Source: a virus
Reading direction: 5' to 3' (one strand)
Length of the DNA: 22,861 nt
Virus record (IMG/VR): IMGVR_UViG_3300046791_000308
Coordinates: 1-22,861 of that record
Positions 4,264 to 9,721 of the stretch are shown piece by piece. How positions within the stretch are numbered: position 1 is the stretch's first letter; the number at the start of each line of letters is the position of its first letter. The notes beneath the pieces are model-generated. The model saw nothing but the letters and a program-made list of their open reading frames with translations, did no database searches and was not told where the DNA came from. Made by a program: the position numbers and the translations under genes.

Positions 4264-4382
4264 GGGCGAGGCTCCTTGGGGGTGTGACGGCGTGAGTGCC
4301 AAGGCTAGCGTCGGGCCGTGCTTCGGCGCGGGAGCATCAGATTCGGTGCCGGAGTGGATCACTATATTACTAGCGTCGATCT
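4264..4382. promoter_or_regulatory. Divergent intergenic region with AT-rich promoter candidate
   Basis: 119 bp separate the leftward PEP-CTERM gene from the rightward terminase gene. It is GC-rich apart from ACTATATTACTAG at 4361-4373, which offers TAATAT leftward (4369-4364) or TATATT rightward (4363-4368) as a -10 box. I do not find a good -35 element at standard spacing for either direction, so the promoter call is tentative. GACGCTAG occurs twice on the minus strand in this gap. Some promoter is expected here because two genes diverge. Confidence 0.35.
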
Positions 4383-5375
4383 GTGGGCATTCTGCAAGCC
4401 GCGCCCGTGCAGGCCATGGTGGACGCGAAAGCGATCTGCTGCTGGTGTGGCGAGACGCTGAAACGGGCGAAGCAACTGAACGTCTGGTCCCCGTGGTGGT
4501 GTTTCACGAAAGCCTGCTACGAACGCCAGTGCGCGTGGTCCGTCACCGCCGAGAAGAAGGGGCGGCCCACGGAGTGGCTCTTCTGTCCGGTGCCCAAACA
4601 GGTGGAGTTTTTCGAGGAAGCCTACCGGCTCGGCAAGCTGGCCCTGGCCGATCCCGAACGTGGCTCCGGGCGCGTGTTATTTGGCGGAGCAGCTGGCCCT
4701 GGGAAATCCCATGCGCTGAGATGGGGCTTGTACCGCGATGCGATGCGGATCCCGGATCTGAATTGCCTGCTGCTTCGGCGCACGTTCAAGGAACTGGACG
4801 CCACGCACCTCCGAGAGATGATGCGCGAAGTGCCGCGCCTGGGCGGCCGGTACCTGACGGCGGATAAGAGAGCCGTCTGGCCGAACGGCAGCGTCATTCA
4901 GGCCGGCCACTGCGAGACGGACACCGACGCCGGCAATCACCTCTCGACCGAATACGACCGTGAGGTGTTCGATGAACTGGTCACGTTTGCCATGGAACCG
5001 GCGCTCGAGATTATGTCTCGCGCCCGAACCGCGAAAGACGCGGTGAAAGCGGCCGGCGGGGCGCAAGTGTGGGCCGGCAGTAATCCTGGCGGCCGGGGCG
5101 CCTTGTGGGTGAAAGCGTTCTTCGTGGACAAGAGCGTCGATCCCGCGCAGTTTCCGAAGTATCAGCCGGAGCGGTATTCCTACGTCCATGCCAAACTGGA
5201 AGACAACCCCTACATGGATCCGGCATACCGCCAAACATTGGAAGAGATGCCGAGTCTAAGACGACGACAGCTTTTGGAAGGCGACTGGTCCGCGTTCGAA
5301 GGCCAGTTCTTCGATTGGTTGCCATCGAAGGATGGCTCACCGTGGCATATAGATGACGTTGGCGTGACGCCGTGA
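4383..5375 (+). CDS. terL: Terminase large subunit, ATPase half (split gene)
   Basis: A 330-aa DNA-packaging ATPase. An N-terminal Cys cluster (CCWCGETL, then WWCFTKACYERQC) resembles a zinc finger. The ATPase follows: PVPKQVEFF as the adenine-binding region, Walker A GGAAGPGKS at residues 101-109, Walker B VFDE with Asp197/Glu198, coupling motif SNP at 233-235, and the typical end LEDNPYMDPAYRQTL then LLEGDW and GQFFDW. A complete large terminase would now continue into an RNase H-like nuclease, but this frame stops after WHIDDVGVTP; the nuclease is a separate gene at 6184. The GTG at 4383 is the first start after an in-frame TAG at 4371. ATG 4416 would keep every motif and is a credible alternative. 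The partner should be the portal, the next large gene. Confidence 0.9.
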   Translation: MGILQAAPVQAMVDAKAICCWCGETLKRAKQLNVWSPWWCFTKACYERQCAWSVTAEKKGRPTEWLFCPVPKQVEFFEEAYRLGKLALADPERGSGRVLFGGAAGPGKSHALRWGLYRDAMRIPDLNCLLLRRTFKELDATHLREMMREVPRLGGRYLTADKRAVWPNGSVIQAGHCETDTDAGNHLSTEYDREVFDELVTFAMEPALEIMSRARTAKDAVKAAGGAQVWAGSNPGGRGALWVKAFFVDKSVDPAQFPKYQPERYSYVHAKLEDNPYMDPAYRQTLEEMPSLRRRQLLEGDWSAFEGQFFDWLPSKDGSPWHIDDVGVTP

Positions 5376-5587
5376 ATCACGATCTCGAGGCGATGCTGTT
5401 CAAGGCGTGGTACATCGCTCGGTGGTCGAGTTATGTGCCGTTTTTCCCTGACCGTCCGCAGTGGTTTGATCGAGATTGGTATGAGGCGCTGGGGACCGAA
5501 GCGCCGGATGGCGCCGTGCTGGTCGATATCTTTCCGCTCAAGGAAGCGCAGACGGCGGATTTGGAACGACTCTGGCAATTGCCATGA
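5372..5587 (+). CDS. Small hypothetical protein within the split terminase, 71 aa
   Basis: GTG at 5372 overlaps the ATPase stop by 4 nt (GTGA) and the frame ends at TGA 5585-5587, which overlaps the next ATG. It is aromatic-rich (AWYIARWSSYVPFFPDRPQW) and ends in an acidic, helical DLERLWQLP. There is no homing-endonuclease motif, Cys pair or signal peptide. Because it is coupled at both ends it should be made whenever the terminase halves are. It could bridge the two halves or be unrelated; the sequence does not decide. The family is not recognised. Confidence 0.6.
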   Translation: MNHDLEAMLFKAWYIARWSSYVPFFPDRPQWFDRDWYEALGTEAPDGAVLVDIFPLKEAQTADLERLWQLP

Positions 5588-5802
5588 GGCTGCTGCTCGT
5601 CGGCTACCTTGCCGCGCTCAGTGTCGGGTGTGCCGCGCATGTGTGGCTCTCTCGGCCGTTGGTGATCGAGGAATACGTTACCGCCCAGGTGCGCATCTAT
5701 CGCGCTGACCGCGACTGTCGCATCGAAGTGGTGACGCCGCTGGAGACGATCATCACGCTGCCGACACGCTGTCTGGCAGTGCCGCATCGGAGGACGCCGT
5801 AA
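5584..5802 (+). CDS. Small membrane or exported protein, 72 aa
   Basis: ATG 5584 overlaps the preceding TGA (ATGA), and the stop TAA overlaps the next ATG by one base. The N-terminus MRLLLVGYLAALSVGCAAHV is a short signal/anchor segment; the Cys at 16 after SVG is a weak lipobox. The remainder (VIEEYVTAQVRIYRADRDCR, then RIEVVTPLETIITLP) looks like a small beta-rich periplasmic domain. Its size and lipoprotein-like start are compatible with an outer-membrane spanin subunit, but no partner or lysis gene is next to it, so I do not call it one. An envelope protein inside a packaging-gene block is odd. Confidence 0.55.
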   Translation: MRLLLVGYLAALSVGCAAHVWLSRPLVIEEYVTAQVRIYRADRDCRIEVVTPLETIITLPTRCLAVPHRRTP

Positions 5803-6200
5803 TGGATGACGACATGGCCGCTCGACTCGCCCGGATGTTTCCTGGCGACTTGGTGCCCAGCGACGAACTGCCAGACCCGCATGTGCCGATGCGCGTCCGA
5901 CGCCAACTGATGCGCGGCGTACGGTACGAACCGCCGCCATCGCCCGTCACCGCTGAGAAATTCCGGCGTGTGATGGAAAGTTTGCCGGAACCACCGTCCG
6001 CACCGTCCGCGCCACAGGTGTGTTCCGTGCCGACGAAAGCGTATTTGCTGGAAAATTCCGCGCATGTCACCCGATGGTTGGAGGAGGCGAAGGATCTCGA
6101 GAGTGACGTCAAGCTCGGGCAACCGGCCGAACCGCATCAGGTCACGCGCCTGCTGCTGGAAGTCATCCCCGTGGTGGAGCAGCATGTATCGCGCCCGTGA
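5802..6200 (+). CDS. Hypothetical protein preceding the terminase nuclease, 132 aa
   Basis: ATG 5802 shares one base with the previous TAA. The protein has an acidic start (MDDDMAARLARMFPGDL), a proline-rich middle (LPEPPSAPSAPQ) and a helical C-terminal third (residues about 80-130) with AHVTRWLEEAKDLESDVKLG and VTRLLLEVIPVVEQHV. It overlaps the nuclease gene start by 17 nt, so the two are probably coupled. Its size and helical end could suit a small terminase subunit or a linker protein, but no helix-turn-helix is evident, so this is speculation. Confidence 0.55.
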   Translation: MDDDMAARLARMFPGDLVPSDELPDPHVPMRVRRQLMRGVRYEPPPSPVTAEKFRRVMESLPEPPSAPSAPQVCSVPTKAYLLENSAHVTRWLEEAKDLESDVKLGQPAEPHQVTRLLLEVIPVVEQHVSRP

Positions 6201-7668
6201 TCTGAAAGTCGCGTTAGGGTGCGACTGGGGCAACGCCTCGCCTGGCTGTGTGCTCTGGGGCTGTGCGCTGCCAGACGGGCACGTCCATATTTTCGATGAA
6301 TATAAATTCCAGCGCATGACGGCGAAGGATGTCGCGTGGGAAGTGAAACAGAAATGTTCCACATGGAACCTTGAGACGGTGCCGTACGCCTGTTGCGATC
6401 CCTCGCTGCTTCCTGCGAAAAAAGGGGTGGCCGGCGAGTGGATTGGCTTGACGCTGCAGCGACACGGGTTGCCGGTCAGGCGCGTCAGTAATGATCGCGT
6501 CAACGGCTGGCAGCGCGTCCATGAGGCGCTCGGCGTCAACCCGCAAACCGGCCGCCCGTGGATGACCATCCATCCGCGCTGCAAGTACCTGACGCGCACC
6601 TTGCCGCTGATGGTGCAGGCCAAGCTCAACCCCGAAGACCTCGAGAGCGACAGCGACGACCACGCCTGTTTCGTCGCTGGCACGATGGTGCTGACGGCGC
6701 GAGGCGAGGTGCCGATTGAATCGGTGACGTTGCAGGACGAAGTGTGGACACCTGATGGCTATCGACATGTACTCGCGGTCGCGATGACGGAGGCAAGTGC
6801 GTCAACGATGACACTCTTCCTCAGTAATGGGCGCGTGTTGCACGGCACGGGGAACCATCCGATTTTCATCAAGGGCGAGAAAATCCGTCTGGATGCGCTG
6901 AGGTATGGCGATATCATAGATGGATGGGCGATCTCTCCTGGTGCCATCGAGACGCACGGGCTAAATGGCGACGACTGGTCGGGCCGATTCCTCGCGGCTA
7001 CGAGATTCATCACAAGGACGGTAACCCGCGCCATAACGCACTCTCAAATCTGGAATGCGTGTCGAAACGGGATCATGCGGCCCGTCACCGTTGGGGCCAG
7101 GGACGTGAAGATCACTTGGCCGCCATCCGTCCATTGGCCGCTGAGTGGCATCGCAGTCCTGCAGGACGGGCGTGGCATCGCGCTCACGCTGTGGCCGTCT
7201 GGAAGAACTGGACGCCCATCCAGAAGCAGTGCGATGTCTGCGGCGTTCTCTACGAGGACATCACCCGTCGAGCGTCCAGCCGGTTCTGTTCCAATAACTG
7301 CAAGTCTCAGTGGAGACGCCAGAGCGGCGTGGATCTCATCGACCGCCTCTGCGCTGTGTGTGGCGGCACCTTCCGCGTCAGCAAGTACGATCACACCCGC
7401 CGCGCCTGTTCGCGTCCCTGTGCTGGTCGTCTCATCTCCGCAACCAAACGAGCGAAGACAGCCGGTCTATAACCTCACCGTGGACGGTGGGCAGTACGTC
7501 GCCAACGGTATTCTCGTCAGCAACTGTGATGCCCTCAGGTATCTCCTGATGGGCGGTCTGCGACCAGGCGTGGCCCAGCGTGACGTGCCAGAAGTGGTGC
7601 CACTGAGTAGCCGGTGGTGGCGCAAGTATTATGGCGATGACGTTTCCACCGGGATCCTCCGCACCTGA
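6184..7668 (+). CDS. terL: Terminase large subunit, nuclease half, with intein
   Basis: A 494-aa precursor starting at ATG 6184, with GTGGAG shortly upstream. Residues 1-161 and 448-494 form the headful-type RNase H-like nuclease: motif I in VALGCDWGN (Asp14), motif II in ACCDPS (Asp72), then motif III DDHA, interrupted by an intein and resumed as CDALRYLL. After splicing the product would be 208 aa with an intact DDHACDALRY site, ending GDDVSTGILRT. The frame remains open upstream to 6064, but that part overlaps the previous gene and lacks nuclease motifs. It would act in trans with the ATPase encoded at 4383 to cut concatemeric DNA during packaging. The last 38 nt overlap the portal gene. 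Splicing is inferred from motifs and is required for a complete catalytic site. Confidence 0.88.
   Translation: MYRARDLKVALGCDWGNASPGCVLWGCALPDGHVHIFDEYKFQRMTAKDVAWEVKQKCSTWNLETVPYACCDPSLLPAKKGVAGEWIGLTLQRHGLPVRRVSNDRVNGWQRVHEALGVNPQTGRPWMTIHPRCKYLTRTLPLMVQAKLNPEDLESDSDDHACFVAGTMVLTARGEVPIESVTLQDEVWTPDGYRHVLAVAMTEASASTMTLFLSNGRVLHGTGNHPIFIKGEKIRLDALRYGDIIDGWAISPGAIETHGLNGDDWSGRFLAATRFITRTVTRAITHSQIWNACRNGIMRPVTVGARDVKITWPPSVHWPLSGIAVLQDGRGIALTLWPSGRTGRPSRSSAMSAAFSTRTSPVERPAGSVPITASLSGDARAAWISSTASALCVAAPSASASTITPAAPVRVPVLVVSSPQPNERRQPVYNLTVDGGQYVANGILVSNCDALRYLLMGGLRPGVAQRDVPEVVPLSSRWWRKYYGDDVSTGILRT
6667..7524 (+). mobile_element. Intein in nuclease motif III of the terminase
   Basis: 286 codons from Cys1 (TGT 6667) to the terminal Asn (AAC 7522-7524), followed by Cys+1 (TGT 7525). 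Block A is CFVAGTMVLTARGEVPIESV; block B is GTGNHPIF with the conserved T-x-x-H. The C-terminal splicing region is VYNLTVDGGQYVANGILVSN (7465-7524). Both splicing parts are in the same reading frame, and the frame between them stays open. The central ~165 codons, however, read as Ser/Ala/Arg-rich sequence without domain character, while the HNH gene occupies another frame there. The residue before the terminal Asn is Ser rather than the usual His. The insertion lies between DDHA and CDALRY, a highly conserved catalytic site, as is typical for inteins. Confidence 0.9.
6924..7472 (+). CDS. HNH homing endonuclease nested out of frame in the intein
   Basis: A 182-aa ORF in the frame one base back from the intein frame. 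It contains a clear HNH core (GPIPRGYEIHHKDGNPRHNA then LSNLECVSKRDHAARH, residues 20-55, His29/His30, Asn34 and downstream Asn/His). Two tandem four-Cys zinc modules follow: Cys103, 106, 122, 126 and Cys143, 146, 162, 166, the second Cys pair of each spaced C-x3-C. This is typical of mobile phage HNH enzymes that cut intein-less alleles. Its TAA (7470-7472) lies inside the DNA for intein block F (GTC TAT AAC). ATG 6924 is the first start in the open frame, but the nearest purine stretch (GAGG at 6900-6903) is too far away for a normal Shine-Dalgarno. How it is expressed (internal initiation, or -1 frameshift from the intein N-half) is unresolved. Confidence 0.88.
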   Translation: MGDLSWCHRDARAKWRRLVGPIPRGYEIHHKDGNPRHNALSNLECVSKRDHAARHRWGQGREDHLAAIRPLAAEWHRSPAGRAWHRAHAVAVWKNWTPIQKQCDVCGVLYEDITRRASSRFCSNNCKSQWRRQSGVDLIDRLCAVCGGTFRVSKYDHTRRACSRPCAGRLISATKRAKTAGL

Positions 7669-9721
7669 CCCTGTCGGCGCCGATCCCTCCGGCGTTCCAC
7701 CCGAACTGCAACACGCCGTGGCCCCAGAAGAGCCGTTAGCGCGGCCGGATATTCTGCCGCTGTCCGAAGAAGACTTGACGTTCTGGAGAGCGGAGATTGA
7801 CCGCTCGGTGAAACTCCGCGACGGCGTCATCTCCGCCTGGGGCGTGACCGACAACCTCGAGCGGTACACGCCAAAGTCCGTGATGAGCGGCTCGAAGATG
7901 AGCGGCCAGGTCAACGTCGGCAAAGACTTCAGCGACGTCGAGCGCAAGAAAGCCGCGCTCTTCTACGACACGCCCGATATTGCGATGGTCCCGGATCCCG
8001 GCACGGATGGCTCCGTGCTGCAACTGCATCAGGAAGTCCTCAATAGCTTACTTGGCCCCAAGCGCATGGACGCCAAGGCCACGGTCTTGCCGACGATTCT
8101 CGATTGCCTCGTCGCCATTCAACCGTGCCCGACCGAGATTGGCTACAACGCCGTCACGGTGGACATGCCGGAGACGCAACCGGGACCCCCGACGCCCGAT
8201 CCGCAAACCGGCCAGCCCGTGCCAGGGGCGCCGATACCAACCGGCAAGATGGTGCCCGTGCCGGTGTGGGAGGAATTCTTCTGGCGCCGGATCTCGCCCA
8301 AAGCGATTCTGCTCCCGGTCACGCTCAAGGACACCCGCTACGACGAAGCCGTGTGGATCGGCTTCCAGTGGCGCAAGCCGCTCTCCACCGTGAAGCAGCA
8401 GTATCAGCTGCCCGAAGAGTGGACGGGTGGCAACGATAGCGTCCTCGACAAACCGCACTTTGAACCGCTGGTGGATCCCGGTGACGAAGGCGAACCGATG
8501 GTGGCCGGCGTCAAGCTCTGGTATCGCGCCTCCCTCCGCGATCCCAACATCACGCATCCGCAAGTGATTCGCGTGTTGGAGCTGATTGACGGCCTCCCCG
8601 ATCCGGTGGTGCATCAAAACGTGCCCTACCAGGAAGTCGGGAAGGATGGACGCCTGACGCCCAACTCGATGATCGGGTTGCCGTGTCATCCCTTGGCGCT
8701 CCGCGACCTGACCGATTCACCCTTTGTCGCGAGTGACTGCACCCTGACCGGGGCGTTGACGCGGGAGTTGAATACCTTCCGCACCCAGATCATCGAACGG
8801 CGCGATGCGTCCAAGCTGCATCTGCTGTTCGACAGTTCGAAGGTCAACCAGGAAGTGCGCGACAAGATCGAGAACGGCAGTGCGCCGAAGATGATTCCGG
8901 TGGAAGCCGGTGCCCTCGAGGGTGGCGCCGACGCGATCATGCAGCAAGTCCCCGGCATCGTGCTCGGCCGCGAGAACTACATGGGCCAGGACGTCATCGA
9001 GCGCGACCGCGATGGCATCTTGGGCATGAACCAGAATTCCACCAACCCTCGCGGCGAAGGCGGCAAGACCGCCACGGAAGTGAAGACCGTCCAGCGCAAC
9101 ACCGATGCGCGGTTTGAGCAGGAGCGCCAGCGCGTCCTGCAGTGGTGGTTGACCGGCGTCCAGAAGGTGAGCGCCCTGGTGCTCCGCTACGGGGACCGCA
9201 TCGCCGTCGAGATTCTCGGTCCCCAGCGCGGCCAGGCGTGGGTGCAGGCGAGAGATAAAGGCCAGTTCACGCGCTTCGCGTTTGAAATCGTGATCGACTC
9301 CGGCACCTTCGTGGACATCGAAGAGCGCAAGCGTCAGGACATCCAGTTGTACAACCTGACGGCGAAGGATCCGACGCTCAACCGTTCGACCTTGCAGGCG
9401 CGAATCGCCACGGACTTCGGCATTGACCCCGCGCAGTGGATCGTCACCAAACCGCCAGAGCATCATCCCGATCCGCCGACGATTTCTATTAGCGTCAAGC
9501 CGGAGGATCTCGATCCGGCGTTGCCCAGTTACGTCGGCACCTTCGCGATTCTCAGTGCCGGCGGGGTGAAGGGACTTCCGCCGCCTCAGCCAGTGGCCGT
9601 GGCCCCGCCCCCGCCGACACCGGGATTGTTGCCGCATCAAGGCACCCCGTCGCCCGTGCCGCGACTCGACCAGCATCAACTCGATCAGACCGGCCAGCCG
9701 CCGGGACAAAGGCCGATGTGA
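7631..9721 (+). CDS. Portal protein
   Basis: A 696-aa protein directly after the terminase, the usual place and size for a podovirus-type portal. The N-terminal 45 residues are Pro/Ala-rich. The next block (EEDLTFWRAEIDRSVKLRDG, then NVGKDFSDVERKKAALFYDT) matches the helical clip/wing start of such portals. The middle has the interior sequence LTRELNTFRTQIIERRDASK, and the C-terminal half has GKTATEVKTVQRNTDARFEQ followed by LQWWLTGVQKVSALVLRY, as in long portal helices. The last ~50 residues are a Pro-rich tail. It overlaps the terminase nuclease gene by 38 nt. ATG 7631 lacks a clear ribosome binding site; ATG 7637, two codons later, is possible. It would form the dodecameric ring through which DNA is packaged and ejected. 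Confidence 0.85.
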   Translation: MAMTFPPGSSAPDPVGADPSGVPPELQHAVAPEEPLARPDILPLSEEDLTFWRAEIDRSVKLRDGVISAWGVTDNLERYTPKSVMSGSKMSGQVNVGKDFSDVERKKAALFYDTPDIAMVPDPGTDGSVLQLHQEVLNSLLGPKRMDAKATVLPTILDCLVAIQPCPTEIGYNAVTVDMPETQPGPPTPDPQTGQPVPGAPIPTGKMVPVPVWEEFFWRRISPKAILLPVTLKDTRYDEAVWIGFQWRKPLSTVKQQYQLPEEWTGGNDSVLDKPHFEPLVDPGDEGEPMVAGVKLWYRASLRDPNITHPQVIRVLELIDGLPDPVVHQNVPYQEVGKDGRLTPNSMIGLPCHPLALRDLTDSPFVASDCTLTGALTRELNTFRTQIIERRDASKLHLLFDSSKVNQEVRDKIENGSAPKMIPVEAGALEGGADAIMQQVPGIVLGRENYMGQDVIERDRDGILGMNQNSTNPRGEGGKTATEVKTVQRNTDARFEQERQRVLQWWLTGVQKVSALVLRYGDRIAVEILGPQRGQAWVQARDKGQFTRFAFEIVIDSGTFVDIEERKRQDIQLYNLTAKDPTLNRSTLQARIATDFGIDPAQWIVTKPPEHHPDPPTISISVKPEDLDPALPSYVGTFAILSAGGVKGLPPPQPVAVAPPPPTPGLLPHQGTPSPVPRLDQHQLDQTGQPPGQRPM

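What the first reader, a model, noticed from the sequence alone, without database searches (positions are those of the whole stretch)
6667..7524. Homing endonuclease encoded out of frame inside a splicing-competent-looking intein
The N- and C-terminal splicing blocks are in one frame that remains open across the whole intein, yet the HNH endonuclease with its two zinc modules is written in a different frame (6924-7472). In ordinary large inteins the endonuclease is in frame with the splicing domains. Here the same ~500 bp would encode both a featureless Ser/Ala/Arg-rich linker in the intein and a complete endonuclease. The HNH stop codon even lies within the codons of intein block F. The options are a free-standing gene that invaded the linker, a -1 frameshift product fusing N-intein to HNH, or two compensating indels. 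By my reading the HNH frame has only about eight NTG codons that could create linker-frame stops, so openness alone is only mildly improbable; the conserved splicing blocks are the stronger argument.
Basis: partly seen in the sequence, partly recalled or inferred. Interest (0 to 1): 0.88.

Follow-up and report, generated by a model that had tools for sequence, protein, structure and literature searches.

The report
Endonuclease gene hidden out-of-frame in intein
In this phage, and in over a hundred others found here, the same ~500 bases encode two things in two reading frames, a floppy spacer of a self-splicing protein segment and a complete DNA-cutting enzyme, and the spacer's frame is kept free of stop codons so that an essential packaging protein can still be made.

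Summary
The terminase nuclease gene (6184-7668) holds an intein (6667-7524, exact). Both Hint halves are in one open frame and model at pLDDT 94-98; the ~150-residue linker is disordered. An HNH_3 endonuclease with two zinc modules (6924-7472; model pLDDT 94) lies in the -1 frame over that linker. Intein-less relatives (L003, L004) show the empty site.

Homologue searches gave 200 non-redundant loci of this HNH family. In 115 it lies between two Hint halves that share one stop-free frame: 113 in phase -1, two in phase +1, none in frame. In the 113 the intein frame has 0 stops over the HNH region, against 5.5 expected. HNH genes with no Hint nearby average 6.6 stops there, and 'fractured' loci 7.5. 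The two +1 loci are purged of stops in the other frame instead.

Best reading: an independent HNH homing gene overprinted on an intein linker, with intein continuity preserved by selection. Splicing, HNH translation and cutting are inferred, not shown. Closest published case: the ShiLan insertion (out-of-frame HNH without an intein). A 2025 preprint on actinophage inteins could not be read and may overlap.

The parts
6184..6666 (+). N-extein: N-terminal part of the terminase nuclease gene (RNase H-like domain), ending DDHA
   Evidence: aligned at 71% identity to intein-free TerL L003/L004; PHROG terminase large subunit, weak
6667..7524 (+). Intein, 286 aa, in the TerL frame, open throughout
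   Evidence: Cys1 ... SN|Cys+1; Hint_2 and intein_Cterm matches; empty site in L003
6667..6930 (+). N-terminal Hint half (Cys1; TGNH with T61 and H64 at 6847-6858)
   Evidence: AlphaFold pLDDT 87-98 for residues 1-90; Foldseek to solved inteins
6943..7401 (+). Intein linker in the TerL frame, about 150 aa, predicted disordered; same DNA as the HNH gene
   Evidence: pLDDT mostly below 55; its invariant residues are shadows of HNH codons
7408..7524 (+). C-terminal Hint half with blocks F/G (VYNLTVDGGQYVANGILVSN)
   Evidence: AlphaFold pLDDT 94-97 for about residues 250-286; NCBIfam intein_Cterm above cut-off
6924..7472 (+). HNH endonuclease ORF, 182 aa, -1 frame relative to the intein; ATG 6924, stop TAA 7470-7472 inside the C-Hint
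   Evidence: HNH_3 7e-13, PHROG 15471 7e-29, model pLDDT 94, all 24 invariant family columns kept
7008..7088 (+). HNH catalytic core codons (H29, H30, N38, N42, H51, H55)
   Evidence: conserved columns of A4/A6
7230..7301 (+). First four-Cys zinc module of the HNH protein (C103, C106, C122, C126)
   Evidence: invariant columns
7350..7421 (+). Second four-Cys zinc module (C143, C146, C162, C166)
   Evidence: invariant columns of A6
7525..7668 (+). C-extein: end of the terminase nuclease gene, starting CDALRYLL
   Evidence: joins directly to DDHA in L003/L004

Best explanation
This is a cis-splicing-type intein in the phage terminase nuclease gene whose linker DNA is overprinted by an independent HNH homing-endonuclease gene in the -1 frame. 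Ribosomes that read the TerL frame make TerL-N::Hint-N::linker::Hint-C::TerL-C, and the intein excises itself (inferred). Separate initiation at the HNH start just after Hint-N makes a stand-alone HNH protein (inferred), whose stop codon lies within Hint-C. The HNH protein would cut intein-less terL at or near the DHA|CDALRY codons, so that repair copies in the whole intein-HNH cassette (inferred). Because the HNH keeps its own start and stop, it can sit inside the intein only out of frame. Selection for intact TerL keeps the intein frame stop-free, through synonymous choice of Leu/Val/Ile codons and avoidance of Met before A (shown by comparison).
For: Exact empty site in L003/L004. Hint halves fold confidently while the linker does not; the HNH frame folds at pLDDT 94; Foldseek matches inteins. 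115 of 127 non-redundant loci with both Hint halves in the same frame around this HNH have no stop across the intein, 113 with HNH at -1 and 2 at +1, none in frame. In the 113, 0 +1-frame stops against 5.53 expected under synonymous resampling; no-Hint homologues 6.59 observed against 7.45 expected; fractured loci 7.48 against 8.19. NTA|purine 0 against NTA|pyrimidine 319, versus 170 and 140 in no-Hint genes; ATG|A 0 of 145, versus 32 of 97. In L177 and L182 (HNH at +1) the purged frame is the other one: 0 stops there against a mean of 18.9 in the rest, with 7 and 14 stops in the frame that the others purge. HNH has its own start, often with a Shine-Dalgarno-like sequence, right after Hint-N. 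Close pairs change mostly at HNH codon position 3: 24 of 38 differences in L069/L099 and L082/L083. Free-standing members of the family sit beside TerL genes in which no Hint domain was detected.
Against: No splicing, translation or cleavage data exist. The window HNH lacks the N-terminal strand segment (xxFNGxxYRRYP...) that most relatives have and has no clear Shine-Dalgarno, so this copy could be weakened. The 'cis' class is defined by zero stops; the fair denominator is 115 of 127. The window's HNH has no close relative on which its own selection could be measured. The HNH model has no PDB match at E<0.001.
Confidence: 0.83

Rival explanations
1. Sequencing or assembly error: two compensating indels moved an ordinary in-frame HNH domain out of frame.
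For: The window is a metagenomic viral contig. In-frame HNH inteins exist, e.g. the CL131 dCTP deaminase (phase 0; reported to self-excise, PMC6293099).
Against: The same -1 phase recurs in 113 non-redundant loci and in GenBank phage genomes TJE1, Highwayman and LS06; the HNH keeps its own start and stop codons; stop avoidance is systematic.
Confidence: 0.01
2. Programmed -1 ribosomal frameshifting makes a Hint-N::HNH fusion, rather than separate initiation.
For: HNH is always out of frame and nearly always at -1; the HNH frame is open upstream of its ATG in the window (from 6828).
Against: No X XXY YYZ heptamer in the window stretch checked (6667-7010), and no enrichment (10/51 against 15/102 control registers); many nested HNHs have a Shine-Dalgarno-like sequence and start codon; two loci use the +1 phase; in L008, for example, the HNH frame is open only one codon upstream of the ATG.
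Confidence: 0.06
3. The HNH is a packaging component (like the HNH proteins reported in phage packaging machines) rather than a homing enzyme.
For: The gene is tied to TerL: nested in it, or directly beside it as a free-standing gene (PAE1, Exiguobacterium phage EauM-23, FBPa53, SN1).
Against: Patchy presence: absent together with the intein from close relatives L003/L004; also found antisense, in fractured loci and at several TerL sites; it is an HNH_3 protein with zinc modules, whereas the packaging HNHs known to me are of another type (from memory).
Confidence: 0.08
4. Chance: the intein frame is open only because HNH codon usage happens to lack stops there, and the intein is a relic.
For: For the window alone, P(no stop) is 0.003 to 0.13 depending on the null.
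Against: 0 of 113 loci have stops against a mean of 6.6 in no-Hint homologues; the purged frame switches with the phase in L177 and L182; the Hint halves stay intact (Cys1, TxxH, terminal Asn, C/S/T+1).
Confidence: 0.02

Closest known systems
ShiLan domain, an out-of-frame HNH insertion in mycobacteriophage methylase genes (Arsenault, Gosselin and Gogarten 2025, PMC11855218)
   Same: A HNH endonuclease with zinc modules is encoded in the third frame of an insertion that stays open in the host gene's frame; patchy distribution; start codon near the beginning and stop near the end of the insertion.
   Different: Reported to have no intein splicing domains and to be retained in the protein; methylase host. 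Here the host frame carries a full Hint splicing domain, the host is the terminase, and the family is far larger. The window's HNH found no mycobacteriophage record at E<=1e-5.
Large inteins with an in-frame HNH domain, e.g. cyanophage CL131 dCTP deaminase (PMC6293099)
   Same: Hint splicing domain plus an HNH_3 nuclease in a phage gene; the CL131 protein was reported to self-excise.
   Different: There the HNH is in the intein's frame (phase 0) and is part of the intein protein; here it is a separate overlapping ORF.
Fractured genes / split inteins with a free-standing endonuclease gene between the halves (Dassa et al. 2009; paper not held, description from memory)
   Same: A free-standing endonuclease gene lies between Hint-N and Hint-C; the same HNH family occupies such loci in TerL (CL2, BL3, Vibrio phage 1.238.A, L048, L072 and others).
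   Different: Here the intein frame is unbroken, so one polypeptide can splice in cis while the HNH is read in another frame.
Mobile group I introns formed by 'collaborative homing' or endonuclease invasion (reviewed in PMC3984707)
   Same: A free-standing homing gene adjacent to the target gene becomes embedded in a self-removing element, and element and enzyme become one mobile unit.
   Different: The element here is an intein, so the embedded gene must also leave the protein frame open; an intron imposes no such constraint.

Membership tests
Intein (cis-splicing) | Cys/Ser/Thr at position 1 and terminal Asn followed by Cys/Ser/Thr | tested here: met
   C1...VSN|C in the window; +1 residue C/S/T in all 115 cis loci
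Intein (cis-splicing) | Hint fold with TxxH block B and blocks F/G | tested here: met
   AlphaFold pLDDT 94-98 in the Hint halves; Foldseek to gp41-1 3e-5, Mtu RecA TMt 0.79; T61 and H64 invariant
Intein (cis-splicing) | Precise insertion in a conserved host site, with intein-less alleles | tested here: met
   L003/L004 DDHACDALRY without intein
Intein (cis-splicing) | Protein splicing activity | not testable with these tools
   needs expression
In-frame HNH (large) intein | Nuclease domain in the intein's reading frame | tested here: not met
   window HNH in frame -1; in the family -1 in 113 loci, +1 in 2, in frame in none
HNH homing endonuclease (HNH_3) | HNH motif residues | tested here: met
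   HNH_3 7e-13; H29, H30, N38, N42, H51 invariant; all 24 invariant columns kept
HNH homing endonuclease (HNH_3) | Cuts the empty allele at the insertion site and promotes its own copying | not testable with these tools
   only patchy distribution and the empty site are shown
ShiLan-type out-of-frame HNH insertion | Out-of-frame HNH in an insertion open in the host frame | tested here: met
   compared with PMC11855218
ShiLan-type out-of-frame HNH insertion | No splicing domain in the host frame | tested here: not met
   full Hint domain present
Fractured gene / split intein | Hint-N and Hint-C on separate ORFs | tested here: not met
   window frame open 6064-7668; 23 other loci of the same HNH family have Hint halves in different frames or separated by stops

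The most novel reading that the evidence does not exclude
A third, widespread intein architecture besides 'endonuclease domain in frame' and 'mini or split intein': overprinted inteins, in which a free-standing homing gene and the intein linker share the same DNA in different frames. It would have arisen at least twice (phase -1 and phase +1), be concentrated in phage terminase genes, and link free-standing homing genes to fractured (split) inteins, the frame being kept by selection in cis loci and lost where the intein is split.
Probability: 0.72. Interest if true: 0.88.

Novelty: new variant of a known kind. Interest (0 to 1): 0.82.

Why it matters
Inteins are normally described with the homing nuclease as a domain of the intein protein. 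Here the nuclease is a separate overlapping gene, so splicing and homing can evolve as separate proteins while sharing DNA. The family displays side by side the states expected if a free-standing homing gene invaded an intein: free-standing gene beside TerL, mini-intein plus neighbouring HNH, overprinted cis intein, fractured split intein, antisense insertion. That makes the origin of mobile inteins and of split inteins testable. Practically, annotation misses these genes: TJE1, Highwayman and LS06 are annotated simply as TerL. It is also a large natural set of overlapping genes with internal controls, in which the purged frame switches with the phase.

Tried and rejected
Group I intron or other structured RNA in 4300-7800: no Rfam match at E<=0.5. 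Frameshift signal: no slippery heptamer in the window stretch checked and no enrichment. Assembly indels: rejected by recurrence. Conserved function of the linker sequence: its invariant residues G161 and G170 are explained as shadows of HNH Trp codons, and AlphaFold gives no fold. Search for close relatives of the window's own intein found only intein-free TerL. Foldseek of the HNH model found no PDB match at E<0.001. The HNH tree has weak inner branches, so the number of origins is uncertain: nested label 8 changes against 26.7 shuffled. The preprint 10.1101/2025.01.02.630785 and Dassa et al. 2009 are not held, so priority could not be settled.

Full report
What is in the sequence. The ORF 6064-7668 (first TerL-like start at 6184) is the nuclease part of a phage large terminase, interrupted by an intein at 6667-7524. 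Close relatives L003 and L004 (71% identical in TerL) have no intein and read DDHA|CDALRY across the site. The intein frame matches Hint_2 and the NCBIfam intein C-terminal model. AlphaFold gives both Hint halves pLDDT 94-98 and a disordered linker, and Foldseek places the model on gp41-1, Mtu RecA and DnaB inteins. In the -1 frame, 6924-7472 encodes an HNH_3 endonuclease with two four-Cys modules, pLDDT 94, keeping all 24 invariant columns of its family.

Is it more than chance? In this one locus, openness of the linker frame is only mildly improbable: P=0.003 when codons are redrawn from base composition, P=0.13 when its own codons are shuffled. The strong evidence is comparative. Four IMG/VR scans with HNH queries, one GTDB scan and GenBank phage searches gave 200 loci after removal of those sharing a 50-residue core. 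Hint halves were located with HMMs and frames compared. In 127 loci both halves lie in one frame around the HNH; 115 of these have no stop anywhere in between. In 113 of the 115 the HNH is at -1, in two at +1 and in none in frame. (In the first set of 59 open loci there were 51 clusters at 70% HNH identity.)

Controls from the same family. HNH genes with no Hint nearby carry on average 6.6 stops in the corresponding frame (36 of 37 have at least one), close to the 7.5 expected from synonymous resampling. Fractured loci, in which the intein halves are in different frames or separated by stops, carry 7.5 against 8.2 expected. The 113 nested genes carry 0 against 5.5 expected. NTA codons before a purine and NTG codons before A, the contexts that create intein-frame stops, are absent from all 113 nested genes and common in the controls. 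ATG before A, which cannot be avoided synonymously in the Met codon, is also absent (0 of 145, versus 32 of 97), so even the HNH amino-acid sequence is shaped. In L177 and L182, where the HNH sits at +1, the purged frame is the other one: 0 stops where the rest average 18.9, and 7 and 14 stops in the frame that the rest purge. I take this as the clearest sign that continuity of the intein frame is what is selected. The cis class is itself defined by zero stops, so the fair statement is 115 of 127.

Which frame carries the protein? Between close nested pairs, 24 of 38 nucleotide differences fall at HNH codon position 3, which is position 2 of the linker frame (L069/L099 and L082/L083). The linker's invariant glycines are the GG of HNH Trp codons. 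So the HNH is the conserved protein and the linker is held mainly to stay open.

How the HNH is made. In most nested loci a start codon lies within about 50 nt after Hint-N, many with GGAGG, GAGG or AAGGAG upstream. The HNH stop lies in the last 40 residues of the intein in 112 of 113 loci, and in 42 of 113 it falls inside an aromatic-Asn/Asp/Ser pair of the C-Hint, as in the window (TAT AAC gives TAA). No frameshift heptamer is enriched. The window's ATG is at the homologous place but has no clear Shine-Dalgarno, and its HNH lacks the N-terminal strand region of its relatives. This copy may therefore be weaker than most.

Where it sits. Of the 45 N-exteins scanned, 43 match the PHROG 2 terminase large subunit family. 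Most insertions are at the nuclease motif (DH|C.DALRY or one residue on); others lie elsewhere. The same HNH family occurs free-standing beside TerL genes in which no Hint was detected (Acinetobacter phage BP10, Pseudomonas phages PAE1 and FBPa53, Exiguobacterium phage EauM-23, Sphaerotilus phage SN1), downstream of a complete mini-intein (L067, L090), between Hint-N and Hint-C of split TerL genes (Lactobacillus phage CL2, Brochothrix phage BL3, Vibrio phage 1.238.A, L048, L072) and in antisense within an intein (L009, L081). On an HNH tree with weak inner branches the nested ones cluster (8 changes against 26.7 shuffled).

Explanation. A free-standing HNH gene that acts on terL became embedded in an intein at that site. 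Because it kept its own start and stop, it could lie in the intein only out of frame. The -1 phase needs the fewest changes, since stops there arise only from NTA|R and NTG|A, which can mostly be avoided synonymously; the +1 phase carries about three times as many potential stops. Shown: architecture, empty site, frame conservation, stop avoidance, phase switch. Inferred: splicing, independent translation, target cutting, homing, direction of evolution.

Against what is known. In-frame HNH inteins exist; CL131 dCTP deaminase is in phase 0 in the same frame comparison and was reported to self-excise (PMC6293099). An out-of-frame HNH in an open insertion was reported for the ShiLan methylase, explicitly without splicing domains (PMC11855218). 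Endonuclease invasion of introns is reviewed in PMC3984707. Ten full-text searches found no report of inteins with an out-of-frame nuclease. However, PMC11855218 cites a preprint on actinophage inteins with 'non-canonical architecture' that is not held and could describe some cases. I therefore rate it a new variant of a known kind.

Noticed in passing
window 4383-6200: The window's terminase is split into an ATPase gene (4383-5375) and a nuclease gene (6184-7668), with about three small overlapping ORFs in between (one at 5802-6200; one lipoprotein-like). In L003 the two domains are one 551-aa ORF.
   Followed up: partly
L048, L064, L072, L085, L016 (Lactobacillus phage CL2), L015 (Brochothrix phage BL3), L257/L258 (Vibrio phages 1.238.A and 1.245.O): Apparent fractured TerL genes: Hint-N ends in a stop, an HNH ORF follows, then Hint-C plus the last TerL residues in a short ORF. 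Candidate natural split inteins, mostly not annotated as such.
   Followed up: partly
L177 and L182: Same architecture but HNH in the +1 phase, with the stops purged from the other frame; probably an independent origin.
   Followed up: partly
L009 and L081: HNH of the same family inserted antisense within a TerL intein.
   Followed up: no
L067 and L090: Complete mini-intein followed by a free-standing HNH gene of the same family; candidate for collaborative homing between an intein and a neighbouring HNH.
   Followed up: no
L100 (CP070724.1, Thermoplasmatales archaeon MAG) and L099 (Prevotellaceae MAG): Overprinted TerL inteins inside cellular assemblies, including an archaeal chromosome record (likely proviruses).
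   Followed up: no
L002, L011, L013: Rhodobacteraceae phage LS06, Acinetobacter phage Highwayman and Tetrasphaera phage TJE1 carry the overlapping HNH, but the records annotate only one long TerL.
   Followed up: yes
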